From Auriscalpium vulgare (Eukaryota > Basidiomycota > Agaricomycetes > Russulales > Auriscalpiaceae), in NCBI GenBank assembly GCA_019915015.1, contig JAHBBC010000058.1, positions 1 through 64,000 on the forward strand: DNA of 64,000 bases, read 5' to 3'. Made by a program: the position numbers and the translations under genes. A model generated the notes under the pieces. The model was given only the letters and a program-made list of their open reading frames with translations, made no database searches and was not told where the DNA came from. Below are positions 26,490 to 63,072 of this stretch, piece after piece (position 1 is the stretch's first letter; each line of letters starts with the position of its first letter).

Positions 26490-26600
26490 CAAGTTGTACA
26501 ATATTCAAATCAATTATTAAAGTACTCGCATACAAGCATTCGTTCGTAAAGTCTTACGCTGGTTCGAATTCCGGTTCTCATTTTTATATTTTGACTTGGC
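26490..26600 (-). pseudogene. Duplicate of a terminal exon of the TGGTGG family
   Basis: On the minus strand 'RNSNQRKTLRTNACMRVL' is read, ending in a stop. It aligns with the last residues of the neighbouring gene (EQNSKKRKTFPRTLVCEYFD). At DNA level TACAAGC, then GTAAAGTCTTACGCT match in the same spacing as at 26770-26805. It is a tail left from another family copy. Confidence 0.55.
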
Positions 26601-26749
26601 CCTTTAATATCTGTGTTACAACGACTTTCTATTCTCACAATATCTCAACCGCAGAGGGCACGCATTACAACGTAATATACAAGACCAGGACATGGAGGGC
26701 GATCGAGACGATTCCTGGACGTGAATTAAAATATTCGAATTAGAATATT

Positions 26750-27965
26750 TCATGCGACATCAAAGTATTCACATACAAGCGTCCGTGGGAAAGTCTTACG
26801 CTTCTTGGAATTCTGCTCTTCAATTATCTTCTCCAACACGGCAACTTCCTTCAAGAGCCTCTGCTCTCGTTCCAGTGTCATCTGGAAGCGATTTTCCTCC
26901 AAGTTGCAGAGGTTCGCGAGATTCTAAAGCAACACAATATTACACTACGTGGAGGAAGAGACTCGTAAATTCTCACCTTGACTCTACCGGACATATTAAG
27001 CGAGGCTACCATGATGTCGTCAATGTCGGGAGGGATAAGCTCTTTGATAGTGGCGGCGACGTCTTGGATACTTTCGAAATCGCGCAACGCAGCGTCGCTT
27101 AAAGGGACTGGGGAATAGAAACAAAGCAGAATATTAAACGAAAGCCATGACGCAGAATCGAACTTTTACCTCTCTCGAGAACACCTTTTATGTCATAGAT
27201 TAGAAAATAAGCAAATTGCGCTATCGTTGTTTAATATACCTTCAGTTTTGTCGGTTCTCTTTAGATTGGTGTTTTCGTCGACACCGCTCCCTGACACGGC
27301 TACGACGCAAATTAGGTCCTCGTATTCATAAAATAAACTTGTCATCACCTGGGGATATGTGAAGTAGATAGCCGTTATTTTGTTAGTACTTGAAGTCAAC
27401 AGGTCTTAGGAACGGAATACCTTCGTCGTCGCGTTCGTACTCAACCACTTCATTGGTGGATTCATCTTCGAGATCGAGGGCCGCGAAATCAAACAGGTTA
27501 GCCTCCTCTTCCCGTGAAGCTGTGAAGTCACTCGATGAGACAAAAGAAAGAAGGAATTCTTTACAAAAAACACGCAACGAATTTTCTCCCACCAGAGGTC
27601 TTCGCCAAGCGATCCGTTGTATGTTATATCGACGGGTTTTTTAGTCAAGAGAATTTTCAAGCAGAATTCGTGGTCATCCCAGTTCTTGAACGCCTTGTTG
27701 ATGATCGGTCCGTATGCATGACCTTTGTGGTGTTTGTTGAGGAGGAAACCGAGAGTAGCCTGCATGATAATCTAAGGATGGATTGTTTTAAATAAATGTA
27801 AGGATGCGGACTTACTCCTTCCTTTCGAAGTTTCGGCCAGAAAGGTTTCCGATCGTTTTCCGTCGCTTGAGAGATAGCGTTGGCGGCGTACACGACGCGG
27901 GCTTCCAAAACAGCGACGTCGTTGGTCGTTACCGGTTGTGCGTCGCGCTTTGGGATGGACGACAT
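26750..27965 (-). CDS. TGGTGG-family protein, copy B
   Basis: Exon 1 (27965-27816, 50 codons) encodes MSSIPKRDAQ and a helix ('LEARVVYAANAISQATENDR') and ends at GTAAGT. Exon 2 (27771-27579, 193 nt) ends 'YNGSLGEDLWWEKI' ten bases after the TGGTGG (27594-27589). Exon 3 is acidic (LFDFAALDLEDESTNEVVEY). Later exons read 'CVVAVSGSGVDENTNLKRTD', 'SIQDVAATIKELIPPDIDDI' and a terminal coiled coil ('QMTLEREQRLLKEVAVLEKI') followed by the basic SKKRKTF and a stop at 26750. Exon 1 is a whole number of codons and exon 2 ends in phase 1, as in the other copies. Exon 2 has exactly the same length as in the copy at 53167. Family function unknown; a nuclear coiled-coil protein is my inference. Confidence 0.65.
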
Positions 27966-28257
27966 GAGATGATGATGGTTGAGGATAGAGATTGGATTGT
28001 CCCGTTTTGGAGACGCGTGACGTCATGTGGTTCACTGACATAACGGAAGTCACGGTGGTGTTCCCGTCGAACCGTAGAGGGCTTTTCAGAATAGAATAAC
28101 ACCTTGATTAAGTTAAAGAACACTTTTACGAATGGACGTTCAAACAGATCAACCGATGCCATTTCGTGACAAGCGAACAACAAGTACAAATCAACGTAAG
28201 CCATGAAACGCATGTGTAAGGTAACTTAGAACCGCTCGCAGAAAGTCAGTGTTTATT

Positions 28258-30189
28258 CTATTTCACTGTAAAGCACCAGAGGTGGATTAGAAAAGTAATG
28301 TGAATATGAATATAAATTACTCGTACCTTGGAAGGTCCTGCTTCGTCTTGACGAACGCGGCGACGTTTCCTGGCTTCAACCGTCTCGACGAGAGGCTCCG
28401 GTTCCAGCTTTAACTTGAGTGCTTCGACTTTCTGCTCGAGATCTTGGATTCGAGAGAGCAGTTGGCTGAACTGAAATTTTGACTGTCGGCGCAGGAATAA
28501 CAAATTCTACGTAAACGTGAGCTATCGTTTACATTCAGTATCAAAATTCGAATTTACGGAGAGCCGCAATTCGAGTTCACCCGTCCGCTTGAGGATAGGA
28601 TTCGACGTCGGATTGAACGCCGTCTTGCCGATGATGAAGTCCCCTTGCATGTGACGCAGTTCATCGCCAATATTGTTACTGAGTATGTACTCATCCGACA
28701 CTGGTAAAATATTCAGCAATGAGTATGATAAACAAAACAAAACACTTACACGTGCGTGGGGCCATGTGTACGGGTACGATGCGAACTATGGATACATATT
28801 AGCATGGGGATGGCATGATTCGCAAAGGACTGCACCTTTCCTTGGTCGGCCGCGACCAGTGGATTGCTTCGCTAACTCTGTGAAGTCGCATTAAATTACG
28901 AGTTCATTACTTTAATCGAACATACTTGGAACGACGCGCTTGGCTGCTTTAAACATGGATTAAGTTCTGCGTCTATCAACAATGATAGTCAACTGACGTT
29001 GCTTGGCTTTTGCTGAAAGGTAAACATCATGAACATTATTTATGATGGATCGCATACATCGGATCGTACCTGCACGAGTATTCCTTTTTTTTGGTGCAGC
29101 GATGGATTCCGCAACTGCGACATAATTAGTCGGCCGTTGTGATCCGGTAATACTTTAAAGACGGGTAAATAGATGAGAACACACCGACGCTCTCATCAGA
29201 TTCTTCGTTGTCGTCTTCGACATCAATATAGTTGACGTCGTCAAGCTCAGGGGATCCGTACACGGACGGACCTATAATAAAAGGGCCGGTATTAAAAACG
29301 TATCGACACTGGTATTAAAGAAAATCCAATACGCTTAACGGATTCTGCTGCAAGTCAAGCGTAAGGAATATTTTATGACGTGAAGAGAAAACATTAAATT
29401 TACCGCTTTTTTTCACGGACTTCTGGACGGTGGGCTCTGCATGACAAGTCGCCTGCCGTTACACAAATACACCGAAATAAAAAATCACATACTGTATTCA
29501 TCATCGGATTCCTTCCCATCAGTATGATCGCTGTCGTTGCCATCGCCGTCGTTACCCTGGAGGACACCGCCCTCAGACGCATCTGTCATAAAAGCATGTC
29601 AGGAAAAGTCGGTACGTGACGATATACAGTGTACAGGCCTTCGTCTTCATCAGAACGGTTATCGATATAAAACTCGTCATCGTTACCTGAACCACGGACG
29701 TCTAATCTTTATGAGTACGATACAATCAGTACTGAAGGAATACACTAACCAAGATTCATCCACCAGCAGTTGTCTCCAAAGTCTTCAACGGTTTCCGCAG
29801 GTTCGAGCTGTATCCGCTGGTACAGTTCGTCGATGACCTCGCGGCCCACGCACGTCTTGCGCTTTTTGTATATGTCGTTCGCCCAGATGCTCAGGTCCGT
29901 CTTGACACCACCGTCCTTTGCGCACTTTTTCGAATGACGACTATACGACCCCTGACATATAATATGAAAGCTGACAGTTAAATAAAAAGAAACAAAAGCG
30001 TACCAATTCTTGGTACACCAGCCCCATGACTTCGTTGGGCACGTCCGCAACATCCGAAACGTTGTAGAAACTCATTGCGATAGCCTCCAATCGTGCGTGC
30101 AAGCGTTCGAGTTCACGGTAGTCCTCTTCTCTCTCTTTGATTTTTGCATGGTCGACGGTCTTGCGCGCACCCTTGCCCAAGCCGGCCAT
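28258..30189 (-). CDS. TGGTGG-family protein, copy A
   Basis: Exon 1 (30189-30004, 186 nt) encodes MAGLGKGARKTVDHAKIKER and a long helix. Exon 2 (29951-29750, 202 nt) ends 'ETVEDFGDNCWWMNL', with TGGTGG at 29765-29760. Several microexons follow, rich in Asp/Glu/Ser: 'NDDEFYIDNRSDEDEG', 'DGNDSDHTDGKESDDEY', 'SPELDDVNYIDVEDDNEESD'. A conserved exon reads 'DELRHMQGDFIIGKTAF' (about 28655-28605). The last main exon is a coiled coil ('LLSRIQDLEQKVEALKLKLE') followed by a strong NLS-like patch (ARKRRRVRQDE). A final intron places a stop near 28260. Starts 408 bp from the plus-strand copy C, so they share an upstream region. I infer a nuclear, self-associating protein. Confidence 0.65.
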
Positions 30190-30597: not shown

Positions 30598-32799
30598 ATG
30601 GCGCTCACCTCCGAAAATCGTCCTCCCACTCTCGAGACAGACATGGCAAAGGTCAAGGACACATCGACGATTATCGTGCCGAAGTTCTCGTCCGATCTTC
30701 CATCAGACGAGAAGCAATTGAGGGGCTACCTGTACCGGCACGAAATCCGGTGCATGTCGTCTGGTCGTGCAGTGAAGGAACAGCCGGAGTCGTCGTATGG
30801 CACTTATGAAATGGCGATTAAGGCAGAGGTGGTGAGTGTTGCCTTGTTTTTGTACGCGTCCAGAATAATTTAATTTTGTAGGCGCAACTTGTCCGAGCGT
30901 TGGGCAAGTGGGATTCATTGGGCGAAGGCGTCGAGTACGAACGGTACGACTGGATCAACGAAACGCGTACCCTCTATCGTAAGGCAAAAACCACCGAGGG
31001 ATTCAAAGCTCTCCTCCGACACCTAGCGTCTCAGCCGCTGCACGAAAACGCGCAAGACGAGTTAGCTGACTCGACCGACTTTTGGTGGGCGACTATTAAA
31101 AAAGGTAGGCAGCGAATAATCAATTAACTGATTTCTTAATAAATGATTATGCAAACAGACACGAGCATGAAAGTGCAGGCGACTTTTGACACGGAAGACG
31201 AGGATCACGGTGAGTCCCGGATGTGAGAATAATGATCAATCCTAATATTCGTATTAAGATAAAATGGACGTTGACGAAACGTCTGTTGGTGACAGTGCCG
31301 ACAAAGGGGTTGGGCAGCACAAAGCCCCTGCAGTGACAGACAAGGGAAAAGGGCGGGCAACGAAGGAAACGGAGGGTACGTCGAGTCGGACCAACATCGT
31401 ATTTTTAATTCACGGCGTCGAAAAAACAGGTATAGTCGACAGAGAGGGCTCGCCTGCGAAGAAGAACAAGTCGCCAGATGGTAGGTCATATTAAATAACA
31501 TTTGATTACTTAAATGACGTTCTCGCTTTAACAAAACTAGTAGTTGTCAAGGATAACGCGCCTGGAGCGGGCGTGAAGGAGAAAGCGCGTGCAGCGAAAG
31601 AGGGTCCAGAGCCAGAGAGTAAGTGACAAAGAACTAATGTGAATTTATTAAATTGACGTATTCGAAATAAAAACCTAGATCCCACGAAGAGCGTGCATGC
31701 GTCGAGGGGTAATTCACCGGAAGGTATGTCACATTTAAAGACCATCGACTATGTAAATGACGTTGTCGCATAAACCAATTTAGTTGTCGTCAAGGAGAAC
31801 GTGTCCGTAGCAAAGGCTAAGGACCCGGATGGTAGGTTACGTTAAATAAACAAGTCTACACCGCTAAATAAAGAATTCTAGTCATTATGAAGTCGCCCAG
31901 GACAACCCGCACCATCAAGTCTAAGGCTATAGTCGAGGGTGCGAGTCACATCCTATAAATTCACTTAATCTAATGCTCGTACAGATAGTGACGATGACGT
32001 TGGTGAGTTTTCAACGAACGTCGAACCGGTTTCCTGTTAAAGTATCACGAGCAGTGGTCGAGGATAATTCCAGTGCGTTTCATATTTTTTCTGTAACACT
32101 ATGTTTTCTTCATTAATAGGATGAATTCAGGGTCAAGGGTGTTGGTTCCTGCCGGTAGACGGGGTCGGTTTGCCAGGCCAAGGGTAAGTTTAACATCTTA
32201 CGATTTATATAAATATTCACCATGAGTTCAGGATTCCGTGGCGAAGAAAAATATTCCGGTAAGTCGCACATGTACACGCATATGAATTAGATGGTCAACC
32301 TGACGCTTAAATAATACAGACAAACCAGCAGACCCAATCTACGGAGATACGCCCTTGCGTGAGTGTGTTTTATAAATAAGCTTGTGGGTATTAATAAAGG
32401 ATTTAGTATCTGGAGACCACGTTCTCGGAACATCCGTTCGCGAGGAAGTCGACTATATTCTCGCGACCTCAAAAGCAGTCGAAAACTTTGCGAAGTCAAT
32501 CAAGACCGGATCAAAGCACGTTTCGGAGGGATACATTCGCAGCCAGGTATAATTCTCAAATATTTAATGCAGACATAACGATTATTAACATGTTGTAGCA
32601 TGTCTCGGTGCTGTGGGAAGACGAACGCAACGTCATGTTGCAAAGAATCGCCGAATTGGAGAGGGAAGTTGAAAGGCTTAAGGTTTCGTCCGGTAAAACA
32701 TCCCCGAATGTCGCTGCAAAGTCGGGAAAGCGCAAGACCGTGAACGCTGCGGAACAACCGGTCGCAGGTTCGTCGAAACTGACTTCAGGCAGGCGTTAG
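30598..32799 (+). CDS. TGGTGG-family protein, copy C, with duplicated internal exons
   Basis: Exon 1 (30598-30831, 234 nt) starts MALTSENRPPTLETDMAKVK. Exon 2 (30882-31104, 223 nt) has 'LVRALGKWDSLGEGVEYERY' and ends shortly after 'DSTDFWWATI' (TGGTGG 31083-31088). At least eight small exons follow, rich in Lys, Asp, Ser and Pro, two of which begin alike (VVVKDNAPG near 31542; VVVKENVSV near 31784) with similar introns, so part of the gene was duplicated. One exon (about 31985-32002) is only 18 nt and encodes DSDDDV. Near the end, 'VSGDHVLGTSVREEVDYILA' and a coiled coil ('RIAELEREVERLKVSSGKTS') lead to a basic tail (KSGKRKT) and the stop at 32797-32799. Exon 1/2 similarity is highest to the copy at 46293. 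Confidence 0.6.
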
Positions 32800-33157
32800 T
32801 CAGTGTTTTCGTTTTGAATGGTTGATGTACACGGCACGTTCTGGTTGTTGAGGCGTAGACTCTTGTAACACGGTCAATGAATATGAAATTTGCGTCACGG
32901 TATGATGAAAAAGTCAGAAAGTCGAAAATATAAACCATGAAATGAGTTCGAATATAATACGATGATTAAACTAATATTCATTTGGTTTAATTAAATCTGT
33001 GTATATATAATCAAGGATGCCGACCTACCCCAAGCAGTGCGAAGATTACCGGTATTGTTGTCGGGGAGAAGATGCCGACCGGTTGTCATTTCGTCGTAGT
33101 AATACCACTGGCTATTGATACGTATTCGAGAAGTGAAATGAGAGCCCCCATAATAAA

Positions 33158-34208
33158 CTATTCCCAGAATACTATATGATCGTCGAACATCGGAATGTTT
33201 ACGGTCAATTCTTGACTAACGTCGGCCGCCGAGCCTAATAGGGATACCAATAACACTTTCCCAGCGTTATCTCGAGCATGCAAGCGATTTTGTGTTTCGT
33301 GACCACATATCCGACACAAGCGTCCCCGGCCCGAAGTTTGATCAATCATGTAGCTCGCTGTCGAATCACAATCCATTGCATGCCATAGAGGTGTGGCCAT
33401 CTCATTATCTACAGTGAGTTCATTACATATCACGCAATATTCTTGCCGGCGAACAGGGCCAGTATTTAATATCGTCGTTGAAAGTTGGTACAGGTCTGTA
33501 CCGTCTTCACGACTTACATCAGGATAGACGTCGGTTACCTTTCTGCGTAAATAGTCTCTAGCGGCTTCCGGTGTTAAGCTGTTATTGCTCCACAGGGTGT
33601 GCATATATAATGTATACGCATTAAGATTCTTCATAGTAGACATCCAATAACCATTATTGAGTTTGAAGATAGAGTACAAAGTAGTCAATAAACTGTCGTA
33701 GGCACAACTGAGGCTGACGGCATCCCAAATTAAACCGAATCGACACTATCATCGTGTTGTACATTGACTTCCGTGCGCGAACGCTTTGCAGGAGGCTCGT
33801 GCATGATAAATATAGATTTACTTCCTTGAGCAGGATTTAACTTGGAGGCAGAGGTAGAGAGTTTTGAATTATTCTTTTTCCGACCATCAATGATTTCCCA
33901 TGCAACAGGGGGGATTACAGTGACTTTCTTAAACGGTTTAGATTTGGACCAAGCAATGGAGGAATGAATTCCCGTGGAACAAATGTCTCCCCTTGGAGAT
34001 CCTGATATTGCCTGATAAGAGCCGAACGGTAGGTCGCGTTTAGTGTAGGACTTAACTCGCCCTCGTATTGCATTTCAGTGATATGATTTAAAATCTCTAA
34101 CTCACGAAGTTCTTGTCTAAGCCATCCTGATATACCTGCCTGTATTTTTTGTGCATGAAATCCTCTCAGATCAGAGTATCCGACAAAGAAGAAGATCGCG
34201 ATAGACAA
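33158..34208 (-). pseudogene. Helitron C-terminal part: conserved tail plus USP-like Cys-rich module
   Basis: The first part (34208 to about 33915) reads 'ISGWLRQELRELEILNHITE' and 'ALIRQYQDLQGETFVPREF', which is the usual tail of fungal Helitron helicases. It continues through a basic linker into 'IWDAVSLSCAYDSLLTTLYS' (about 33735-33676), which resembles the Cys-box of ubiquitin-specific proteases (C19). Then come 'LTPEAARDYLRRKVTDVYPD', two CxxC pairs (EYCVICNEL; GRLCRICGHE) as in a zinc ribbon inserted in USP domains, and a stop at 33158. A stop codon and a frame change (near 33700-33750) separate parts. A deubiquitinase-like role is family inference and catalytic activity is doubtful in this copy. 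Confidence 0.6.
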
Positions 34209-34448
34209 GTGTAGATTGATTGGTGGTTTCTACAATGTTGTAAATCCACGACATTGACTGGTCGCGTTCGGCCTTGAGCTTGAAAGTCCGTCATAGAAAA
34301 ATTAGAAACTGTTCGCGAGATATTTGCATGTCGCGATCACTGCGTGTAGCACAACGGACGGATGTGACTTGTTTCGATAAAGGAATAGTATTTAAAGGTA
34401 AGTTAGGGATTTTTATTGGCGTTGGTGGATGCGTCAATTTCAAGAAAA

Positions 34449-35700
34449 CTACCTCGAGAGCTTGATGATTTTTATCCAATGGATAAGACTTCCATCCGTA
34501 ACGGTTGCTTCGGCTCCATTAGTGACGGAGAGTTCAGTCGCTTCGTTCTTTTTGATCATGACTGGTAAACCTATACATAATGACAGTTTTCCTGGAATGT
34601 GATCCGTAGATGCAGGTCGCAGTTGCCATAATTCGTTCTGATGCTCTTTCACAATATTATCCGATGATCGCAACGGATCTACTAAAGTACGTTTACCGCG
34701 CTTACCAGTGGCTTTCTTTTCTTTAGTCGTCCACTTATCCTTTGAATAAAAGTCTTGTAGTTCTTGATTAGTTTCTCGAGCAAAGCGTTTAACCCCCACG
34801 GCGTTAATGGCATCTCGCTGGACATTAAACGCGGTTATAACCGATATATTGCGAAACTTTGGGTCGGAATGTTTAGGTTGATGAGCAGCAGGACCCGCAA
34901 CTCGAGTCATCAGTAAGGCAACATCCTCGTCGGTACATGCAGCATACCGCATATTCTCTAGTGCTGTTCTGAAAGCGAGATCCTCGTCAGACTGTATATT
35001 TTGTCTCATATTCTGCTTCAAAATAACCACCACCGTGAACTGATGCCAGAGTGCTTTTCCTAAAACACATTGTTGGGTAATATGGCTGTTAGTCGTATGT
35101 ATAATACTTTGTGCTTGAGGTGCATACAACGAAGGATGTCTTCCTGGGGGTGGGAGCTGCGCAAAATCTCCGGCAAAACCATGTTGATACCACCGAAGGG
35201 GTCGCCGGGCATACGCATGGCATTGCTCATTTGGGCCGAAATGGTATAAAGATTATGACAGTCGACCATGGAAATTTCGTCCAAGAAGATATATTTCACG
35301 TGTTTGATGCGATCATATATTTCACCCATTGTCGTGATATTTTGCTGGGTGGTAAAGCCATTGATGCCGAGAACTGAATGATAAGTTGAGCCAGATATAA
35401 GGGCAGCAGCAGCACCAGTTGGTGCTAGAGTTAGAAATTTATGTGATTCATTTCTTTGGGCAAACCATTCCATCAAGGCTTTTATAACCTGTGACTTTCC
35501 TGTGCCAGCCATTCCACCCAGATAAAATTTTAATTGACTAGCTTCTGGATCCAGAGAATGTTTAGTGATTATACGGAAGGCACGTCTCTGATCGGAATAT
35601 AACGTAAAGTCTCTCTCGATTTTATCCATCAACCGTCTTTCTTTCTTGGTCCCTATAATATATCTTTTATCCAGGTACTTTTTATCAACATTTGAACGAC
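34449..35700 (-). pseudogene. Helitron PIF1-like helicase domain, frameshifted
   Basis: The first frame has 'LYSDQRRAFRIITKHS', Walker A 'YLGGMAGTGKSQVIKAL' (about 35530-35480) and Walker B 'KYIFLDEISMVDC' (about 35292-35254). One base is missing in a T run near 35181. The next frame then continues 'AGDFAQLPPPGRHPSLYAPQ' and 'HQFTVVVILKQNMRQ'. The C-terminal motifs ('GLPVMIKKNEATELSVTNGA') are near 34560-34510. This is a superfamily 1B 5'-3' helicase used to unwind DNA during rolling-circle transposition (family knowledge). Confidence 0.8.
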
Positions 35701-36710
35701 GTTAGTATTGTAGTGTGGATATTCCCCGCGTCTCAAGTCTTTATTTAAATGAGCAGTTTCTTTCTGACGGTTATCAAGGACCTTTTGTTTTTCTTTATTT
35801 AATATGCCCTTCCACTCGTTGGGAGCGTGCGCGCCGCCGGATTCAAAGGGTACATTGAAGGATGCACTTGTTTGAGCTGTTGCCCAACCATTATTCTGTA
35901 GTAAACTTTCCATTTGCTGATATTGTATCAGCTTGCGCTCTTCCCTCTTGCCAATTTCTTCCCAGTAGCTCTTAATGACTTCTTTAAAACCGACCTCATC
36001 GATTTCGGCGGCGCCTATCGGCTCGTCTTCATCGCCACTGTCATTGAATGCAAATTTATTATTTTCGTTGTTCATGTTATGTTTACCTTCTCTTCGTTGC
36101 GCGGCGTAGTCATCATGGGCATCTCTGCACTCATGCCTGATTTGGAAATGATTCATAATATCTTTTTCCCGGTTTGAAAATTGATGGTTATTAAACGCAT
36201 CCTCCCATGTTTGGTCGGTAGATTTGAGATCTTCTGGGTTTCGCCAAATTTTAAACAAAGTCAACATCGTCATGCAATACATCTCCCTGTTTCCCTTATC
36301 CCTTCTTGGTAAAGACCTACCTACGAAATTGGGAATTATATTTTGCTCCTCAGACACAATGCTAACTTCTTGTGTTGAATATTGAGGATGTTCATCCGTG
36401 AAACGATAGAATTCTTTTCGATGACGTCGCTTACGTTTTTGAGGACGCTTCCGTACTGGTTCATAATCGCTATCGGAACCATTGTCACTGGACTCCGACG
36501 TCGTGTTATCAGAGTCAGCGGGTTCGGCGTCGTCAACAATGAAAGGAGGCAGTTCGTATGAATCGTTATTATCAGGGTGCTTCTCATTATTATTTTTTCG
36601 GCTCTGTGGAATTCGACGCTTCTCGTATTTTCTACACACTCATAAACATTCATATTTGACAGCAGGATAGGACGGTACATGTAATCCATGGCTGTAGTAT
36701 GAGGCACTAT
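35653..36710 (-). pseudogene. Helitron inter-domain region
   Basis: Reads 'AMDYMYRPILLSNMNVYECV' in one frame, then after a frame change 'RKYEKRRIPQSRKNNNEKHP', a very acidic/Ser segment (TTSESSDNGSDSDYEPV), the basic run 'RKRPQKRKRRHRKE' and 'NFVGRSLPRRDKGNREMYCM'. These segments usually lie between Rep and helicase in fungal Helitrons. Another frame change near 35697 joins it to the helicase part. Confidence 0.7.
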
Positions 36711-36727
36711 TCTTCCTTCTACATTCT

Positions 36728-38825: not shown

Positions 38826-39548
38826 ATATTTTTGGTACAGGCGTTGAGAAAAACACAGCGTTTGCAGACATTTTATGTAGACCCGAATTCTTTACTCTCA
38901 CTATGCAACGGTTATGACACACGCGGGAAATCAACATCTTCTCAGCCCAGGAAAGCTCTTTCAAAACAGGAGGAACTGCTCCTATCCAATTACCATTAGC
39001 AAGGGCTTGCAGAGGGATTTTATTCTTTTTCAATTCTTTGAAGCACCCCTCACATGTAATGGCTATTTCGTACTAAAATGCCTTCGGGTCAGCTTCTATA
39101 TTGTCTGTAGAGGTAAGACGTTCCTTTCTAGTTACATATGTACTAGGTGAATATAATATGTCCATTTCTACGGGACGTTTGTTCAAGTCAACCATATCTT
39201 TCTTGAGATACAGGCACCCGCATACTTTACAACTTTGCTCAATAATACGATCTGCCGACAAATCATTGCAGAAATCGGTTATTATACGATGCATCAGTCT
39301 ATCGGACATGGGTCGAGGGGAAACCTAGTTTGTTCAAAATTCTCTTTTTCTTTCTCACTATGTCGTTGACCAGTTCGTCTATCCGTGTCCGACACAATGT
39401 TGTGTATACGAAATCGAGAGACGTGAGTATCACAAGCAGTACACTGTTCATGATTCGACAGTCGTTCGCGGATGATGTCTACTTTAATGTTATGATCGGC
39501 AGGAATTTTATGAATGACACATAACTCCAGAAGGACAGATTTGTGCAA
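38743..39548 (-). pseudogene. Helitron Cys-rich N-terminal region
   Basis: Two frames read 'HEQCTACDTHVSRFRIHN' and, after a shift near 39300, 'ADRIIEQSCKVCGCLYLKKD' and 'GNWIGAVPPVLKELSWAEKM', ending in a proline run where a C-homopolymer (near 38808) breaks the frame into the Rep part. The paired cysteines suggest zinc-binding knuckles, common in this position. Confidence 0.65.
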
Positions 39549-39879
39549 AGTTTGAAGATGATGAAGGGTATCTTAGCATATAGGTAGTTTGGGTTATTAT
39601 ATACTGATTTATTGAATGCTATTTGACCAGCAAACTCATACGAACAAAAGCGACTGGGCACTGATGTGTTAGGTATAATAAATTCGCTAAGTGAATCGAA
39701 TGACCAAACAAACAACTGAGTGCGCCCGCCTCCTCGAATGGCAACATCTTTTGGTAGGTTGTATTATTGTAAGGAATATGTAGTACATGGAGCTCACGAA
39801 GACCACGAACAAAAATAACGTTGATCTAATATTGTTTTCATACGACATCGCCGCAATTGTTTTTACGTTGAGCTCATTT

Positions 39880-40085: not shown

Positions 40086-40099
40086 AGGCATGGTTGAGT

Positions 40100-44478: not shown

Positions 44479-44601
44479 CGTGGTGAGAGTGAGAGGAAAT
44501 GGATACCCGTCGTTGCAGGCATCTTCTTCCAAGTATATAAGGAGTCTAAGTTCAAACCCCGCTATGTGACCGGAAAAGGAAAGGCTGGGAGTAACGAGAC
44601 C

Positions 44602-48014: not shown

Positions 48015-49423
48015 ATGGTCAGATTACATGGATCCCACGCAACTGTCCCAATCCAGAAAGCGGCTAGGAATACTGACAATCACCTCGAACAACGTAGCCG
48101 CTCTCATGCCCGTCTCCAAGCGATCACGGAGGAGTTTAAGCTACTAGAAGATGATATAGACTTAACCAGCGACATACACTTGATGCTTCTCAAAGAAATT
48201 GTACGTCACATAACGCACGCTCACAAACATGACATTAAATAAATACCTCTTTTAATTAGAGTGGATATTCATATGCATATTACGAGAGTGTAACGAATGA
48301 TGAGGTCGAGACTCCGTTCGCAGCGTGGAGCCGTGCTACGACTATAGCCAAGACCAAACCCAGCACTCGAAACATCATACTGCAATTGCGTATGTTTCTT
48401 AAAGATTTTCCTGCAGATGAGGTCAAGGACTTGGGTAGAAATCAGTGGTGGGACTACACGAGTGAGTTCTTTATATCTACAGGTTAAAATACGTGTACTA
48501 TCCAATTCAGCAGAACCTATTGAAGAATGGGAAGATGGGAGGGAATCCACAGTAAAAAATGAAAAGGAATCGGAAAACGGTTAGCAATATCTACTTCGTA
48601 GTTCATATTAGATTAAACGGACGTCACTTTAAATACAGTGCCATGGTATATGACCAAGGAGTCTCAGCCACAATACCATAGTAGGTTTTTCTTTAAAATG
48701 GGGCACTTAAATCTCAATGAATTACAAAACAGATAGTGAAAATCAAACGTCTCCGGAAACAAACACGCACCACGGTAGTCATTTAATGCATTCAATTTCA
48801 TAATATATTATGTGAACGTTGATTAATGTTTACAGAACCGGCTATAATAACACGAAAAATGACGAGAGAGCGTGCGCGAAGATCGATTAATACACCCAAG
48901 CCATTAGATAATAGTAAAAGTTCAGCTTGGGTTATCAGACAATATCTCATACCTTTCACGATAGGCCACTCTTCTCATCTTACGATGGCTCCTCGCACAC
49001 GTTAGTATTCGACTTTCCGACACGCAGGGATTCTCCGTATTCAATCTGAACAGTATCCGGCAACATGATGCTTACAAACGACGTTAAGAAGGAGATCATG
49101 CATACTCAAGCTGATTTCTTAATCGGAAGAAACGCTTTCAACCGCAGAATCAATTCGGGGGAGAAGCACGCAAAAGAACTGAAGATACGGTGTGACGTAC
49201 GTTGATCACACATAATATAATAATCGTTTGATTCATAGTTATGCAGAACTTAATGGTACTACGGAACCGACAGGATGACTTGTACCACGCAACCCTCAAC
49301 CGCATTGAAACACTCAAGAAAATAATTGCGAATCTCACGGCCCAAATTCAACCAGATCATACCGATGTCGTTGATGACACAATGAAAAAACGTCCACGCA
49401 TAGAATCAGACGCCCCGAGGTAG
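48015..49423 (+). CDS. TGGTGG-family protein, copy G
   Basis: Exon 1 (48015-48200, 186 nt) starts MVRLHGSHATVPIQKAARNT and ends 'DIDLTSDIHLMLLKEI'. Exon 2 (48260-48461, 202 nt) ends 'DEVKDLGRNQWWDYT' (TGGTGG 48446-48451). Both exon lengths equal those of copy A. Next come 'EPIEEWEDGRESTVKNEKES' and 'MTRERARRSINTPKPLDNSK', then the conserved exon 'KKEIMHTQADFLIGRNAFNR' (about 49088-49147). The last exon (from about 49241) is a coiled coil ('LNRIETLKKIIANLTAQIQP') and a basic end (DTMKKRPRIES), stop at 49421-49423. One of the most complete copies. Confidence 0.65.
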
Positions 49424-49832: not shown

Positions 49833-50653
49833 ATGATGGCTTCAAAACAATTCGACGACGTCAAAGGGACGCCCATTGAGTACGAGGAACTGGTCAAACA
49901 GCAACAGAAGAGGAGTGAGTTGCTATAGAACTTATAAATATATGTTGACTAATGTAATACACAGAAAAAGAAATAATGGCAGAGATGAGCGACGGTAAAC
50001 TTATTTATTTGCTCGTTGATAACATATTAATATTCTATTATCAGCCACCACCGGAAGCATTAAAAGTAACAAACGATGATATGAAACAGGCATATGAATT
50101 AATCGGTGATATAGGGCCGAGATTTGAGCAAACGCATTGCAATAAAACAAAGAATACTATACCTGACAAAGGAAAAAAACGAGTTCAGGCAGGGAAAGGT
50201 ACGCATCACGATTGCAAATGATATAACATATAACCCATAGTATGCCAATCCTCACAGGTCAAGTCACACCGATTAGCATGGCACTGCGAACCAGTAAACT
50301 GAATTAATATGTAACGCGAACACGTCTACTAATATGCGGATCATAGTGAAAGGAGAAATTATTTTCTCGAATGACCTCCAAGATAAAGTTTCCTTCATGC
50401 AGGGGGACATTATCATTGGCAAGATGGCTTTCGACTGGAGGGCGAATGAACTCGGCAAATATACAAAACTGATCGTACGTTTAGAGGTATGTCTAATTCA
50501 AATGACCGATAATATTATAATATGCATTCGGCACAGAACATCCTAGTTATGCATAAATATCGGCGTGCACTGTACGAGGAGACTCTGAACCGTATCTCTG
50601 TACTGGAAGAACGTATTGCAACGTTGAGGGCCAAATTGGAACCCGTCAACTAA
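49833..50653 (+). CDS. TGGTGG-family protein, copy H, truncated (promoter fused to exon 5)
   Basis: The first exon (MMASKQFDDVKGTPIEYEEL) corresponds to exon 5 of copy I (TAVKQFYDIKGVPSEFEELV), with the same GTGAGT donor. Exons 1-4, including the TGGTGG exon, are absent. Further exons read 'PPPEALKVTNDDMKQAYELI' and 'DKGKKRVQAGKG'. The conserved exon is 'NDLQDKVSFMQGDIIIGKMA' (about 50360-50425). The last exon (50547-50653) is the coiled coil 'RRALYEETLNRISVLEERIA', stop at 50651-50653. The product would keep only the conserved block and the dimer helix. Could be a pseudogene or a short regulator-like form; I cannot tell. Confidence 0.5.
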
Positions 50654-51173: not shown

Positions 51174-52846
51174 ATGAAGGGTTACCCAACGAAGAACATT
51201 GAAACGATAAAAGAACAGTACGCAATACATCAGCGACAGGAAGTTGAACGCTTGCATGCCCGTTTGTACGAGACAGTAAAGATGCTTCAAAAGGATAAGA
51301 GCGCTGCATCGAATAAGTATGTCTTGAAGATGATCTTCAGGGAAATGGTACGAGTTATTTTATTGTATCTTCACATCTACATTTTATTTCAGAGAGAATT
51401 TTATCGCGAGTACTTCAACTTCATTCAAGCAGGCGGAGTAAAGATGCCGATTGGACCATGGTGCCGCAACGCGTACAAATTACGAAATACATGCGACGGC
51501 AAGAAAGTTATCAACGAATTATGCCAATTCTTTTCGGATCCCGTTCAAATTGACATCAAGGATTTGGGTGCGAACCAATGGTGGTTAAACATAGGTAAGC
51601 TTCAATCTACGTTTCATGGACAGCATGCAATTATTCAGCTATGCATGAAGCCGAGGAGGTTGTCGACGACGGCGTCGATGACGATGAAGATACCGACTAT
51701 GCAGAAGGTGAGTTAGAATAAGACGGTATTACTTTAAGTTTGAATAATCTATCACTCACATTGGATCAATTTATCATTATAGACTCGGACACCAGCAGCA
51801 ACGAAGATGTTAATGAAAATAACAAAGGAGATGAAGCAAAAGGTATAAGCTTCAACACCGAACGCGCATCACGTGTTCTGAATGTTTAACAGACACGAAT
51901 AATTTGTCCCCTTTAATGACGGCCGTGAAACAATTCTACGACATCAAAGGGGTGCCCTCTGAGTTCGAGGAACTAGTCAAACGCGCGCAGAAGCGAAGTG
52001 AGTTGGTGTATAATTTATTAATACATGGTAAATGACACGATACACAGAAACGGAGAGGGAAGAAATAAACAACGGTGAACATATTTATATGCTCACCGGA
52101 AATATATTAACGAGGAATGTGATAGCGCCTACAGAGATTATTAAACGTAACACGCGCATTATACAAATCGTGCATGATAATTTATTCGTGATACAGGGCC
52201 GGAAAATCAACAAAATGATCGCAAAAAAACAAAGACAATTGTTCCCGACAAAAGGATACAGCGGCCTCATGCAAGAAAAGGTACGCTTCCCGATTATAAA
52301 TAACTTTATGTGTAACCCACAGTACGCTATTCATCACAGTTCAAGTCACACCGGTTAACATGGCACCACGAACCCGTAAACTCATTTAATTCGTAAGGCA
52401 AATGCATCTAATAATGCGATATGTAGTGAAGGGAGACATGATTTTGACGAATGACCTCAAAGATGAAATTTATTTCATGCAGGGGGACTTTATCATCGGC
52501 AAGACGGCCTTCGACTGGAGGGCAAACGGACTCAACAAGTATATAAAGAACTCAATGCACGTTTAAAGGTATGTGTATTTCAAATAATACATCGTGTTAT
52601 ATTATGCACTCGGCATAGAACCTCTTAGCACTGCTCAACCGTCGACGTGCATTGTACGAGGCGTCATTGCACCGTATCTCTCTCCTTGAAGAACATATTG
52701 CGACGTTGCGGTCCCAATTGGATCCCAACACTTTCATTGAACCAAAGGACTTTTTCAATAAACGACGTCGCATGGATCCACACAAGCAGCCCTCTGATCG
52801 GACAGAGAATGGCACCGCAATTGCCAGCGACAAGGGAAAGCCCTAA
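51174..52846 (+). CDS. TGGTGG-family protein, copy I
   Basis: Exon 1 (51174-51347, 174 nt) encodes MKGYPTKNIETIKEQYAIHQ and a helix. Exon 2 (51393-51594, 202 nt) has 'RNAYKLRNTCDGKKVINELC' and ends 'KDLGANQWWLNI' (TGGTGG 51579-51584). It is most like copy A, exon by exon. Exons 3-5 are acidic ('EEVVDDGVDDDEDTDYAE'; 'DSDTSSNEDVNENNKGDEAK') and then 'AVKQFYDIKGVPSEFEELVK'. The conserved exon is 'LKDEIYFMQGDFIIGKTAFD' (about 52450-52520). At its end the copy is out of step by one base relative to copies A and H ('KYIK' then a frame break). The last exon has the coiled coil 'SLHRISLLEEHIATLRSQLD' and the basic FFNKRRRMDP, stop at 52844-52846. Confidence 0.6.
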
Positions 52847-53166: not shown

Positions 53167-54677
53167 ATGTCAAGCAATATCCCTGATTTCAATCGCAACT
53201 CAGAATCCTGCGAGGTGGGAATATTCTCGTATCTAATGTTTGCCTATATCTGTAACCAACGAACCATAGACAAGTATAGGTTTCGACATTCAAAGATTAG
53301 AAACACGAATTGTGTTTGCCGCGACCGCCATATCAACCTTACCAGCAGATAAAGTAACTAAAGATATGTGGGATAAACTTTTACATGAAACGGTAACTGT
53401 CATAAACAATACGTCGCAAATGCCAATCATGTTCACCTCTATCACAGCGCCAATTTGGTCGAACATTGTTGAGAGCAGAAACATATAATATTCAGAAAAC
53501 CGAATACCAAGAAGCTATCATAGAGGGCTACATAAAGAGAAAAGACAAAGTCACGCTGCTAAAAAAACTAACATCCAAACGAAGGAGTGACGTCACCTTC
53601 AGTGGGAATCTAGGAGAAGACATATGGTGGGATAACATCGGTAAATACATTTATTTTGACGAATATTCTTAGAGATTAAAGATTGAATGAATGACATTAA
53701 AAGCAGCCAAGCAGCTTGTAACACCGAAGACGAATGACGAAGAAAACAAGAGGAGAACGTCAAATGATTCGACAGACAAATTTATTGCTCATACTCAAGG
53801 TGCGAAGACAAAGAACATAAGTCATACATACTCACGTATTTCCAACAGACGTACAATACCAATCGTCAAATGAACCAAGTGAGTACATAATAAATGACGA
53901 CAGAACAAATATCGACAAGATGTGTAACAGATGAATCAAGCAATAAACCCGATGGAGATCAGACTTGTGCTACAAGCAGTGGACGTATATTGAACGGTAC
54001 GCTACCGCATGATAACGACGAGCAATATTAAAATCTGAGATCGCCAGCAGACATTTCAGACATACCTACTGAAATATGTAAGTTGACACAATACTGATAA
54101 ATAATCACATTATTAACAATTGGCAGATCAAATAAAAAACAATCTCACTGACATCGCAATCGCGGATTTAACGCAAATGGAACAAACGATTGAATTCGTC
54201 GAAAAAACGAACACGCCGTCGTCGTTCTTCAAAGTGGTAAAAGCAGTACAGACCTTGAAAAATACCGTGGAGGTTAGACATGCCATCTACTGCATTTAAA
54301 GTACTCAACAACCACACCTTGTTTAAACATAGCATCTATGCATGACATGCGAGCGAGATGAGGACGCATTGAATACACGAATGAATAACATAAAGAAGCT
54401 AGAAGCATTGAGCACGACATTATCAAACAAACTTCAAGTTATGAAGACGAATGTTAAACCTGCTAAACATAAAATCGATCAAGATAATATATCCAACGCA
54501 AGTAAAAAACAAAGTGAGCATCTACATATACAATCCATGCACCTACTAATAAATAGAATACAGAGATTCAAAAGTGATCCAATTTCTTCACCAGGATGGT
54601 CATGTATTAGATTGTTCGTCAATACATCGCCCCACCCTTCACACATGTTATCCCAAACCTTGCACTACGGCAAATAG
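53167..54677 (+). CDS. TGGTGG-family protein, copy J
   Basis: Starts MSSNIPDFNRNSESCE, then an intron (GTGGGA...CATAG) absent from its relative copy B, then 'TSIGFDIQRLETRIVFAATA'. Exon 2 (53448-53640, 193 nt, identical in length to copy B) has 'EAIIEGYIKRKDKVTLLKKL' and ends 'TFSGNLGEDIWWDNI' (TGGTGG 53625-53630). Later segments read 'KTNDEENKRRTSNDSTDKFI', 'DIAIADLTQMEQTIEFVEKT' and a terminal helix 'NNIKKLEALSTTLSNKLQVM' followed by KPAKHKI. The last exon and stop are unsure; the open frame ends at 54677. The linker between about 53700 and 54060 has stops in places, so exon edges there are not settled. Confidence 0.55.
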
Positions 54678-54699
54678 GGAAGGCCAACGTTATTAAATC

Positions 54700-55254: not shown

Positions 55255-56167
55255 TCAGAATACGAGTAGGACTGTCTTAATAACTCGAACCTTGTAAACT
55301 TCAGTCAGGTAATTGAACTCTTCGTTGAGCGCATCACTCGCAGATATCAGTTTCTGGAATTGTTTAAGTGAAAAAAAACGCGCTATTGTATTGATTATAC
55401 GTACCAGAGACCGACGATCATTCCGCCATACTTCATCCTCGACAGACTTCATGTTTGACTTCAGTTCGTTCAGCAATTGGTGACAATCCGCGAGCCTCCT
55501 TTCAACATCATCTAAGCAAGAACACATTACATGTGAATAGTGAACGTGCAAGTCCTGAAATATAAAATATACCTATTTGCATTGTAGGCGGAGGAACAAC
55601 ATTAGACGACGAAGCAAGAGGTAACGTGATTTTGACACGTTGTCGCCTTCCCTCCTGGTCGGTAAATACACGATGTATTTTGAGAGGCACTGAGAAATGT
55701 TAAACAAAGCAACCACATAGAAACATTAAGAAACACCTTGTTCCCACCACCGATCTTCACCCAAGTCTACTTCTTTATATCGAGGAGGAGCATCGGAAAG
55801 AAAATCGGATACGGTCAAGGAAATATTGTCGCCGTCCCGCGCGCGATAGGCATCCGCGATAATACGAAAAACTTTGTCCATGTACGGAGGTATACTATGA
55901 TCATCTTCCCGCGTTGCCAGTCTTGCATTAAACTAAAGCATGTACTATTAGTAGCGAAATAGCAAAACCGAAAACAAACTTTACCGCTTCTGTCAATAAT
56001 CGACGCAACCCATCACACTGCTCGTCCCGGCCCATACGTGATAAGGACAACGCAGCGACGTAAAGTCGACATTGAAGTTGATTCAGGTCAACTGATGACA
56101 TGTTGCGGAGAAGAAGTCGAGGTTTGATAGCCCCTATCACGCTCCGACTTCTCAAAGAACGTGACAT
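55255..56167 (-). CDS. TGGTGG-family protein, copy K
   Basis: Exon 1 starts at 56167 (MSRSLRSRSVIGAIKPRLLL) and includes 'SSVDLNQLQCRLYVAALSLS'. Exon 2 (55932-55737, 196 nt) reads 'ARLATREDDHSIPPYMDKVF' and ends 'RYKEVDLGEDRWWEQ' (TGGTGG 55749-55744) in phase 1. The next exon is 'KIHRVFTDQEGRRQRVKITL'. Then 'DVERRLADCHQLLNELKSNM' and 'NALNEEFNYLTEVYK'-like helices (read DALNEEFNYLTEVYK here) form the C-terminus. The stop may be at 55255 or, with one more exon, near 55182. Its start codon is only 86 bp from that of the plus-strand copy L, so both must share one short promoter region. Confidence 0.55.
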
Positions 56168-56253: not shown

Positions 56254-57281
56254 ATGCCCGTACCAGCTCATATTATCGCAAGGGAAACACGCATTGCATG
56301 TGTTATAAAGGCATTCAGGTCTCAAAAGAACAAATTGAAAACATCGGATATCAAACGAGTCGTTGCAGAAATAGTATAGTTTTCGTCATTAAAAACCAAG
56401 GAGAAAAACTAACACCAAAATAGTTAGACGCATACAATGATATTCCAGATTATACAAATCAAAGCGAATTTATTCTCCCTCCATACATTGCCAAAAGCAT
56501 CCGATATATATCAACAATTGCTCTAGCAGGAAAAGCGTGTTTGAGCAGTTCGATATCACAAGACTGGCAGATATTCCCATTGAAGTCGATATACGATGCT
56601 CAAGTTATAAGGGAGAAAATATGTGGTGGAATGAGAAACGTAAGTAAACAATATGTTCTACAACAATATTCATACCGATATACGGTCAATGTAGATAATG
56701 AAGTAATCTTAATCGAAGATACGGAAGAAGCGATATACAGTAAGCATTTATGTTTCATCTTCAATTTTATCGCATTAATTCTACCACTCAGTATCCAGCG
56801 GCGGTACAGAAGCTACTCCTTAAATCAAAATATTCATATGAGGGACTTATGAGCGTACAGATGAATCTGCAATAAGACCTATGCAATGTACATCAAAAAG
56901 TAAGCGTTGAATAAATATCAACAAATTCAAAAGAAACCTAATAAACAAATAGATGGATCTGTAAAAGAACTTAAAACAAAAGCGCTGGAAGGTAAGTAAA
57001 CGATCGATTTATTAAACATGACAGAATGAATGTTTATGCAGATAATCAAATAAAGAATGATGACTCAGAAATGCAAGCAAACCACATACAATATGACGCG
57101 GACAAAACTGAGACCAAAGGTAGATCCATAAATAAGAACAAACCAAGGCAATAAACTAAACTTAACATGGTTAGATCGCAACTTCAGTGAAGACATTGTA
57201 CTGGAAATGGGGGAACTTCATCAAGACCTTCTTCACACATTGAAATACTTACAACATCTTAAACAATTAATTTCCAACTAA
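56254..57281 (+). CDS. TGGTGG-family protein, copy L, probable frameshift
   Basis: Exon 1 (56254-56373, 40 codons) encodes MPVPAHIIARETRIACVIKA. Exon 2 (56424-56639) begins 'LDAYNDIPDYTNQSEFILPP' and ends, in another frame, 'IRCSSYKGENMWWNEK' (TGGTGG 56624-56629). Its 216-nt length leaves phase 0, whereas every other copy leaves phase 1, so one base is gained or lost inside the exon near 56525-56545. Small exons follow ('NEVILIEDTEEAIYS' near 56697-56740). The last exon has the helix 'SEDIVLEMGELHQDLLHTLK', stop at 57279-57281. Probably a recent pseudogene unless splicing differs. Confidence 0.45.
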
Positions 57282-57338
57282 TAATGACGAATAGTAACAA
57301 AAGGACATTATACACAATAAGACATTGACATGTAGTAA

Positions 57339-57677
57339 CTAGGTTGTTTTCTTTACAGCGCCGGTCTGCCGTTTCCAGTATTCCGGGTCTTCCATACGTT
57401 TCACTAAACAGACAAAGATATCATGAATAACAGTATCCGTTTTAGAAAATGAAACACCCACGAAGAACTTTTAAACATGAATTAACAATTTAGTTGATAC
57501 GAAAGAATCACGTACATACCATCAACATCAGTGTCGCGATCTACCCCATAACATAAAAAAACGAAATAATTGATATGAGACGTACAAATTCTTACCATGC
57601 ATCTCACCAGGATCCAAATTATTCCAGTCCGCCGCTTCCAACAAAGACAAATCAACAGCTACACGAATCAAAACCAT
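57339..57677 (-). CDS. Short TGGTGG-family-like gene, copy N
   Basis: Exon 1 encodes MVLIRVAVDLSLLEAADWNN plus LDPGEMH and ends at GTAAGA near 57594. A 21-nt microexon (DRDTDVD) follows, then, after a TTTAG acceptor near 57400, 'VKRMEDPEYWKRQTGAVKKT' and a stop at 57341-57339. All three parts join in phase 1. The 'ADWNN' plus acidic microexon order recalls the end of exon 2 and first linker exon of the larger copies, so it may be a truncated member. Its start is 93 bp from that of the plus-strand copy M. Confidence 0.35.
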
Positions 57678-57770
57678 TAAGGCACCAGATATATAGTGAA
57701 TTGAACAGGGCCACGATACCTTCATTCTTTCCTTTGGACTTTAAACTAACGATAACAGCATCTTGCTAAA

Positions 57771-58805
57771 ATGATAAGTTTCCAACACTACGGACGCTTG
57801 AGATCCGTACCGCGAGGTTCAGGCATCATGGTAAAGATTGAACACGCGACAGTATCACCAACCGAAACAGGGGTATTGAGCAAGCATGTACAAACAACGT
57901 CGGCATCTGAAACACCAACTCAGGGGGTCAACGGTCGCTTTCCCGCTTGGCTACGTAACATGTTGTCGACGTACAAAGAATCTATGAAATCCGAAACAAA
58001 GACAGAAAAACTGAAAAAAGACATCAATACACGTCAAAAACAACTGAAACAGCTAATAAGAAAGTATCAACATGACCCTTCGCAAATAAACAACGATTCA
58101 ATTCGAGACCTAATGTCTTTAATAGTACGTTCCTCACTTTTATAAATAAGCATCGCGTTAAAATAAACGACAGGCAATTGTTGGCAAAAAAACGCTCTAT
58201 TGGTTCAGCTCACGGGAATACCGACAGAACCAGAACTAGGCGCCATCATAATGTTATTCCACAACCATCAATATCTCTCACCACACGCCATATCACGAAA
58301 AATAAGTGAATTAAATATGTCGAATGATGCAAAACCAAAGACGGTAAGACCATGAGATGAAACATTGAATATCTTGTACTAAGACGATTTCAGGATATAC
58401 ATTCAGAAGAGATTGCAACCATCGAATACACGGATGGCAGTAGGGAGGCACCAATCAACAGTAGTGAAGGTGTGTGATGAAACACAATAAATAACGACGT
58501 GGTTACGATTCAACGCCAGAAGTGAAAGTCAACCTGTCGATGCTGAAGAAAGACGCGGAATTTATACACAAAAGAATGAACGAAGAAATAGACAAAAGAA
58601 TAACTTTGACGATTAATATGATTACAAGGATAGAGGTACGTAATAAATCTTTCAGTTTACATCATATAAAATCTGGTACAGGTCATCAAGAAATTATACG
58701 CACAAAAGTCATCGCATGCAAGGAAAATCCCTTGAAATAACGAAATTGGAGGAACACATCCGCCGGCTGCAAGAACAAGTCGATAGTTACGACGAACTAG
58801 TATAA
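57771..58805 (+). CDS. Diverged TGGTGG-family-like protein, copy M
   Basis: Exon 1 (57771-58124, 118 codons) starts MISFQHYGRLRSVPRGSGIM (a second ATG is at 57828) and has a Lys-rich helix ('KLKKDINTRQKQLKQLIRKY'). Exon 2 would start at 58174, but its best frame ('QLTGIPTEPELGAIIMLFHN') is out of phase across an A7 run, and there is no Trp pair. Next come 'DIHSEEIATIEYTDGSREAP' and 'LSMLKKDAEFIHKRMNEEID', and the last exon has 'LEITKLEEHIRRLQEQVDSY' ending with TAA 58803-58805. The last two exons match the end of the family (LEEHI..L..Q.D). Either a diverged member or a damaged one. Confidence 0.4.
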
Positions 58806-63070: not shown

Positions 63071-63072
63071 CA

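What the first reader, a model, noticed from the sequence alone, without database searches (positions are those of the whole stretch)
26490..58805. Cluster of an unrecognised, fast-evolving multi-exon gene family marked by a Trp-Trp exon end
At least nine copies (about 26.75, 28.26, 30.60, 46.29, 48.02, 51.17, 53.17, 55.26 and 56.25 kb) share the same order: helical exon 1, exon 2 ending shortly after TGGTGG, acidic microexons and a terminal helix, in several followed by a basic patch. Four or five truncated or diverged copies accompany them. Proteins differ so much that similarity is seen mainly in layout. A local cluster of diverging nuclear-looking coiled-coil proteins could serve self/non-self, silencing or conflict roles, but this is only inference.
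Basis: partly seen in the sequence, partly recalled or inferred. Interest (0 to 1): 0.88.

Follow-up and report, generated by a model that had tools for sequence, protein, structure and literature searches.

The report
Giant fungal jumping gene's family nursery
The nine odd look-alike genes are passengers on a 36.5-kilobase jumping gene of the Helitron kind that has copied itself around a fungal genome, and the passengers as a group seem to be kept working by selection, which is unusual for genes carried by Helitrons.

Summary
In detail: nine related multi-exon genes lie at the stated places, recognisable by an exon end LGxxxWW or alike and by a shared intron-phase plan. Complete near-identical copies lie at C7 and C19; interrupted, truncated or contig-end copies and one decayed fragment lie at six further places. 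The element has sharp ends, no target-site duplication, a perfect terminal hairpin, and a RepHel gene (HUH Rep plus PIF1 helicase), intact as a 2376-codon ORF in the C7 copy and broken in the window copy. The same ends flank at least 20 small elements (2.7-8.3 kb); the three that were read carry neither RepHel nor these genes. So it is a giant, non-canonical Helitron carrying a diverged nine-gene family. Pooled, the genes evolve under constraint (dN/dS 0.39-0.46 among copies), unevenly: gene A shows none. One Auriscalpium vulgare protein joins relatives of two neighbouring genes in the same order. Proteins: helical, coiled-coil, several with basic C-terminal patches; no Pfam family. Their role is inferred: nuclear helpers of the element, perhaps against silencing. 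New variant of a known kind.

The parts
26396..26460 (+). Left terminus of the element (ACATGTTGAAGAGAGCC...; the first A may belong to the target), weak 5' hairpin
   Evidence: Flanks diverge exactly here in the window and five other copies and in C7; 171-bp search lists 41 places: 8 full-type left ends, 2 internal duplicates, 31 shorter matches; hairpin z -1.2
26750..27965 (-). Gene A, WW family (group A/G/I/H), 255-263 aa
   Evidence: gene model; exon-2 profile
28263..30189 (-). Gene B, WW family (group B/E/F), 372 aa, 15 exons; same length in 6 of 7 copies modelled
30598..32801 (+). Gene C, WW family (group C/D), 458 aa, 16 exons, with repeated exon-end stretches
32991..40091 (-). RepHel gene (DUF6570, Helitron_like_N, PIF1; C-terminal tail cysteine-peptidase-like by eye); broken in the window copy, one intact 2376-codon ORF in copy C7 (L091:1280-8410)
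42357..44522 (-). Predicted RS-rich protein gene with about 20 very short exons (model uncertain)
44687..45876 (+). 309-aa gene of unknown family, 6 exons; relatives at about 33-38% identity at more than 20 other loci of the genome
46293..47600 (+). Gene D, WW family (group C/D); end of the reading frame uncertain; modelled lengths differ between copies and C7 has an early frameshift
   Evidence: Auriscalpium relative
48015..49423 (+). Gene E, WW family (group B/E/F), 314 aa; same length in 5 of 7 copies modelled
   Evidence: Auriscalpium relative
49833..50653 (+). X1, copy of the upstream region and later exons of F lacking F's exons 1-2
51174..52846 (+). Gene F, WW family (group B/E/F), 388 aa in 4 of 6 copies modelled; frame disturbed near the end in the window copy
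53167..54577 (+). Gene G, WW family (group A/G/I/H), 306-307 aa in 4 of 5 copies modelled
55255..56101 (-). Gene I, WW family (group A/G/I/H); exon 1 splice uncertain
56254..57243 (+). Gene H, WW family (group A/G/I/H); exon 2 split in the window copy, open in copy C7
57828..58805 (+). J, weak relative with C-terminal coiled coil only
59505..62000 (.). Tandem repeats of the right arm (three units spaced 465 and 505 bp, then 68-bp units); the 68-bp type is shared by the three small elements read
62750..62899 (+). Right terminus; perfect 9-bp-stem hairpin at 62876-62897, element ends 2 nt later

Best explanation
The block is one giant, non-canonical Helitron (rolling-circle DNA transposon), 36.5 kb in the window and 37.3-37.7 kb in its two other complete copies. 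It moves by its own RepHel: the Rep nicks and joins single strands at the element ends (the 3' hairpin acting as terminator), and the PIF1-type helicase unwinds. The nine WW genes are resident passengers that diverged inside the element by duplication, including duplication of symmetric phase-1 exons, and they travel and multiply with it. Shown: boundaries, copies, RepHel, shared ends of small elements, gene plan, pooled constraint. Inferred: the rolling-circle steps, and that the proteins go to the nucleus (basic patches), pair through the C-terminal coiled coil, and bind DNA or chromatin to help the element (transposition helper or protection against silencing). Core claim (Helitron cargo family) about 0.93; helper role about 0.3.
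For: Copies of the array at C7, C9 (two), C13, C19, C33, C58 (second copy) and a fragment at C2. Left end identical and flanks unrelated in the window, five other copies and C7; right end likewise in the window and 12 other loci. No target-site duplication: flanks fit the uninterrupted repeat ..TTG[T/C]GTAGCGTA|CCTCTGCTACC.. seen in 4 of the 5 repeat copies inspected, the fifth not covering the site; a sixth (L090) was fetched but not inspected. First base after the right end is C or T in 13 of 13 (10 C, 3 T). Terminal hairpin: 0 of 200 shuffles fold as well. Intact RepHel with DUF6570 2e-38, Helitron_like_N 1e-28, PIF1 9e-24, HUH and paired-tyrosine motifs, Walker A (motif meaning recalled). 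Small elements with the same ends: 20 like-oriented left-right pairs within 10 kb read off; the three read in full have no RepHel and no WW gene match in blastn, and the two of them put to the exon-2 profile gave none. Constraint: 62 nonsynonymous to 49 synonymous changes, expected nonsynonymous share 0.733, dN/dS 0.46, p 6e-5; without C2 36:30, 0.44, p 8e-4; without C2 and C33 31:29, 0.39, p 3e-4. Without window and C2, third codon positions vary at 33/2507 sites against 30/5015 at first and second, p 0.002. P0001 of Auriscalpium vulgare joins relatives of D and E in order, 76% (D exon 1), 81% and 87% (E exons 1, 2) identical, but 42% for D exon 2.
Against: Ends are not those of canonical Helitrons (no 5' TC, no 3' CTRR, A^C or A^T rather than A^T only) and no inverted match above 8 bp was found between the last 60 bp on the left and 510 bp on the right, so the class rests on RepHel plus ends. 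The pre-insertion repeat uses the left flank of copy C7 and the right flank of the window copy: each has the repeat on one side only, which means recombination between copies or an assembly swap. Movement by this RepHel is inferred, not seen. Constraint is uneven: gene A 22:7 (dN/dS 1.16) with the decayed C2 copy and 5:2 (0.92) without; X1 3:0; three premature stops among copies, one of them outside C2; first and second positions are lower than introns but not significantly (p 0.07, 0.05, 0.07 in three sets); dN/dS near 0.4 is relaxed; H, I and J were not tested. Several copies carry frameshifts. No RNA evidence. The own-genome RepHel search did not complete (ten tries, last), so RepHel elements without WW genes could exist.
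Confidence: 0.72

Rival explanations
1. Inert captured host genes: the WW genes are a host family swept up by the Helitron, carried without any use to it.
For: Helitrons are known to capture genes (PMC4289320, PMC6431247, passages read); gene A and X1 show no constraint; one small element holds a GC-rich segment that also lies on C24 (L096, L097).
Against: No copy of the WW family was found outside the element in three own-genome protein searches (queries F, C, A) apart from one E 0.7 hit that the exon-2 profile did not confirm; more diverged relatives could be missed. Pooled constraint; same gene order in another species; 38-48% G+C from 26 to 62 kb against 52-63% at 16-26 kb and 50% at 62-64 kb.
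Confidence: 0.25
2. The block is a different giant element (a Starship-like, Polinton-like or viral insertion) into which a Helitron once jumped before amplification.
For: 36.5 kb is large for a fungal Helitron (review PMC6431247, passages: up to 14 kb in fungi, up to 39 kb in maize); ends are non-canonical.
Against: No other transposase, integrase or polymerase was recognised in the ORFs scanned inside the element (not every ORF was scanned); terminal hairpin and lack of duplication fit rolling-circle elements; the small elements share these ends.
Confidence: 0.06
3. The host uses the WW proteins (domesticated defence or self/non-self proteins) and the element is merely their vehicle.
For: Divergent paralogues with coiled coils; pooled constraint.
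Against: Genes found only on the element in the searches made; the number of copies changes with transposition; no fixed single locus.
Confidence: 0.05

Closest known systems
HELPO1 Helitrons of Pleurotus ostreatus with captured genes capA-capF (PMC4289320; passages read)
   Same: Basidiomycete Helitron with RepHel plus genes of unknown function without known domains, some of them expressed
   Different: [quoted passage not shown] here nine members of one family in 36.5 kb with non-canonical ends
FoHeli elements of Fusarium oxysporum, Helitron2-like (PMC5148889; passages read)
   Same: Non-canonical ends, terminal hairpins, an extra ORF of unknown function found only on Helitrons
   Different: About 5-11 kb, clear asymmetric terminal inverted repeats (not found here), different terminal letters and targets
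Large maize Helitrons with up to nine gene fragments, up to 39 kb (as summarised in PMC6431247; passages read)
   Same: Size and number of passengers
   Different: Those are captured gene fragments; here full-length, spliced members of one family, pooled under constraint
VANC anti-silencing proteins of plant VANDAL transposons (recalled only; paper search failed)
   Same: Only a functional analogy: element-encoded accessory proteins beside repeats of the element
   Different: Different transposon class; no sequence comparison made

Membership tests
Helitron superfamily | RepHel: HUH Rep with paired tyrosines fused to a PIF1-type helicase | tested here: met
   Copy C7 ORF of 2376 codons: Helitron_like_N, PIF1; HMH at 824, YVTEY at 1017, GTGKS at 1533, numbered without the first Met (meaning of motifs recalled)
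Helitron superfamily | No target-site duplication | tested here: met
   caveat: flanks of two different copies had to be used for the pre-insertion repeat
Helitron superfamily | Hairpin at the 3' end | tested here: met
   9-bp stem, 0 of 200 shuffles as good; it sits 2 nt from the end, closer than in canonical Helitrons
Helitron1 (canonical) | 5' TC, 3' CTRR, A^T target | tested here: not met
   Ends ACATGTTG.. and ..GGAATCAGAA, target A^C or A^T
Helitron2 | Asymmetric terminal inverted repeats and hairpins at both ends | tested here: inconclusive
   Only an 8-bp inverted match; 3' hairpin strong, 5' hairpin weak (23 of 200 shuffles as good); no RepHel tree made
Helentron | AP-type endonuclease domain in the RepHel ORF | tested here: not met
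   No such Pfam domain in 2375 aa at E 0.5
Starship | Tyrosine-recombinase captain at one end | tested here: inconclusive
   None seen in the ORFs scanned, not every ORF scanned
Any known protein family for the WW genes | Match to Pfam or to a solved structure | tested here: not met
   Eight pieces of six genes (A, B, C, D, F, G) against Pfam: none above cut-off, two weak sub-threshold hits to C (E 0.05) and G (E 0.13); exon-2 profile against PDB sequences: one hit, E 0.97; fold search with a poor model (pLDDT 56): 37 matches at E up to 10, none at 0.001 or better

The most novel reading that the evidence does not exclude
The element runs its own diversifying protein repertoire: WW proteins pair in many combinations through their coiled coils and recognise the element's repeat-rich arm (68-bp repeats shared by its small relatives) to keep it from being silenced. 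Duplication of symmetric phase-1 exons lets the linker change without breaking the frame, and an element-encoded RS-rich protein would help splice these microexon genes.
Probability: 0.1. Interest if true: 0.9.

Novelty: new variant of a known kind. Interest (0 to 1): 0.72.

Why it matters
Capture of full-length host genes by Helitrons is described as exceptionally rare (PMC6431247, passage read). Here a Helitron carries nine spliced, apparently full-length members of one family unknown to Pfam, pooled under constraint and with two of them in the same order in a second fungus. That makes a long-standing question, whether Helitron cargo ever works for the element, directly testable, and gives nearly identical natural copies plus small relatives with the same ends to test it on.

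Tried and rejected
Local host cluster: rejected by the copies and sharp ends. Viral origin: one scan of viral contigs with F exons 1-2 found no relative (2 stretches matched a pattern, none confirmed); RepHel against phage records gave only helicase-region matches in 18 records. A block of remnants only: rejected by codon-position bias and splice plan. Structure route: the one model made (P0001 with 13 window exons) is poor (mean pLDDT 56, pTM 0.37) and the fold matches are generic coiled coils; nothing is drawn from them beyond 'helical, long C-terminal helix'. One other locus with a relative of the 44.7-kb gene (L097, 10 kb) holds no WW exon by profile. Four candidate mates among the small-element ends were left out of the count of 20 pairs for wrong orientation or a gap above 10 kb (for example C10:1077492 with 1075056, C2:1685131 with 1668418).

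Not answered: protein database searches with C and with P0001 (timed out) and with B (database switched off: that query could not be made). Paper searches timed out, so I make no claim that this element or family is absent from print; two paper searches were answered. Own-genome RepHel search: ten attempts, none answered. The only homologue found (P0001) comes from one search that scored 7996 candidates, so other relatives may exist.
Full report
1. What is there. The window lies on contig C58 (95 kb) of a 51.6-Mb genome of 96 contigs. From 26 to 62 kb the G+C content is 38-48%, against 52-63% at 16-26 kb and 50% at 62-64 kb. An exon-2 profile finds these nine loci and no tenth in the window. 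Eight of nine are recovered when left out of the profile; D is not.

2. Gene plan (recounted without a zero-length exon of the first count). The Trp-Trp exon has 185-223 nt. The intron after it is phase 1 in 8 of 9 genes, and 57 of 81 introns are phase 1. Of the 62 exons between the Trp-Trp exon and the last, 49 are multiples of three. In A-G (7 of 9) a late exon of 131-143 nt is followed by a phase-0 intron and the coiled-coil exon; it is entered in phase 1 in six of these seven (F in phase 0). H and I do not show it. Several last exons carry a basic patch. Inside gene C a 25-nt stretch over an exon end and donor recurs three times at 72-84% and longer stretches match at about 73%, which suggests duplicated exon cassettes. 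Groups by sequence: B/E/F, C/D, A/G/I/H. Between groups: 82%, E 1e-5 (B/E/F to A/G/I/H); 8%, E 0.004 (B/E/F to C/D); 0.7%, E 0.086 (C/D to A/G/I/H); best of six reversed controls E 0.014. With the Trp-Trp end cut off, none exceeds the controls. Kinship across groups therefore rests on the Trp-Trp end and the intron plan.

3. It is a mobile element. Three protein searches of the own genome hit the array again at C7, C9 (two), C13, C19, C33, a second place on C58, and a decayed fragment on C2. In the loci aligned, identity is 98.8-99.8%, in C33 98.4-98.7%, in C2 95.7-97.4%. The left end is sharp: in the window, five other copies and C7 everything before ACATGTTGAAGAGAGCC is unrelated and everything after is shared. 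The right end is sharp at window 62899. Complete copies: window 36.5 kb, C7 37.7 kb, C19 37.3 kb. From the spacing of matches, the two C9 copies are interrupted, C13 lacks the right part, the second C58 copy runs into the contig end and C33 begins at its contig start. The window is one of nine places, not a special locus.

4. What kind. Inside the element lies RepHel. In the window it is broken into several ORFs; in copy C7 it is one ORF of 2376 codons with DUF6570, Helitron_like_N and PIF1, the HUH and paired-tyrosine motifs and Walker A, and a tail that looks to me like a cysteine peptidase (by eye; no Pfam match). The right end carries a perfect 9-bp-stem hairpin two nucleotides from the end (z -7.4; z -4.1 for the last 153 nt). 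There is no target-site duplication: four of five inspected copies of an interspersed repeat read TTG[T/C]GTAGCGTA|CCTCTGCTACC (the fifth fetched piece does not cover the site; a sixth, L090, was not inspected), with the left half found left of copy C7 and the right half right of the window copy. That the two halves sit at different copies is unexplained (recombination or assembly). The first flanking base on the right is C in 10 and T in 3 of 13. Ends and target differ from canonical Helitrons; a terminal inverted repeat as in Helitron2 was not found (8 bp at best).

5. Small relatives. The left search lists 41 places: 8 full-type ends, 2 internal duplicates, 31 shorter matches of about 49-64 bp at 87-94%. 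The right search lists 40: 26 at 98-100%, six at 90-91%, eight partial at 87%. Both are lower bounds (40 candidates scored of 50 and of 212). I read off 20 left-right pairs of like orientation 2.7-8.3 kb apart; three of the 20 were fetched (L094, L095, L096). All three have the same ends and the 68-bp-type repeats, and blastn against the window matches nothing else of the element; L095 and L096 also have no WW exon by profile. L096 holds a GC-rich segment that recurs in part on C24 (L097).

6. Do the genes work? Among the window and eight other copies, variable sites in the predicted codons of eight genes (A-G and X1) favour third positions: 55/2571 against 27 and 29 of 2571 (p 5e-4); without window and C2 33/2507 against 30/5015 (p 0.002). 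First and second positions are lower than introns but not significantly (p 0.07 and 0.05). dN/dS is 0.46, 0.44 and 0.39 for all copies, without C2, and without C2 and C33. Against: gene A shows none (1.16; 0.92 without C2), X1 has three nonsynonymous and no synonymous changes, there are three premature stops (one outside C2), and several copies have frameshifts in single genes; copies of B, E, F and G with the full modelled length exist. H, I and J were not in this test. F and X1 differ by dN 0.20, dS 0.50 (NG86).

7. Relatives elsewhere. One protein search was answered: a single hit, P0001, FA95DRAFT_1577263 of Auriscalpium vulgare (Russulales). It reads as gene D followed by gene E in one annotated protein: 76% identity to D exon 1, 81% to E exon 1, 87% to E exon 2, 42% to D exon 2, of which P0001 seems to hold only a part. 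So the D-E neighbourhood is older than one genome, or was transferred. No viral relative in the one scan made.

8. How it most likely works. RepHel copies the element as a single strand and inserts it between A and C or T; the end hairpin stops copying. The WW genes ride along. Their pooled constraint, and their absence elsewhere in the genome in the searches made, suggest use to the element. Basic patches suggest the nucleus, coiled coils suggest pairing, and the repeat-rich right arm offers binding sites; a helper or anti-silencing role is my best guess at about 0.3. None of this last step is shown.

9. Novelty. Helitrons with passenger genes are known; fungal ones were reported up to 14 kb, and full-length gene capture called exceptionally rare (PMC6431247, passages); [quoted passage not shown] FoHeli has an extra Helitron-only ORF (PMC5148889, passages). 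A nine-member family with a common intron plan on one Helitron is, to my knowledge, a new variant; I could not check whether it is in print, since seven paper searches failed.

Noticed in passing
window 44687-45876 and one search places: A 309-aa gene with no Pfam match has relatives at about 33-38% identity at more than 20 loci across the genome, outside this element; perhaps an accessory gene shared by several mobile elements.
   Followed up: partly
window 42357-44522 (-): Predicted RS-rich protein split into about 20 very short exons, inside an element whose genes are full of microexons.
   Followed up: no
window 62900 and C7:1362305: The two halves of one interspersed repeat, cut at the same site, flank different copies of the element: recombination between copies or an assembly swap.
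   Followed up: partly
window 13943-16777 (+): 944-codon ORF with a Transposase_21 (tnp2) match, E 2e-9, in another AT-rich patch.
   Followed up: no
window 62900-64000: Interspersed repeat (22 other places listed at 92-98%) with a sub-threshold integrase match, next to which the element ends.
   Followed up: partly
L096 and L097: A GC-rich segment inside one small element (8.3 kb, C11) recurs in part on C24, perhaps captured.
   Followed up: no
window 39900-40069: 15-bp repeats (about 11 copies) lie over the start of the RepHel ORF as read in copy C7.
   Followed up: no
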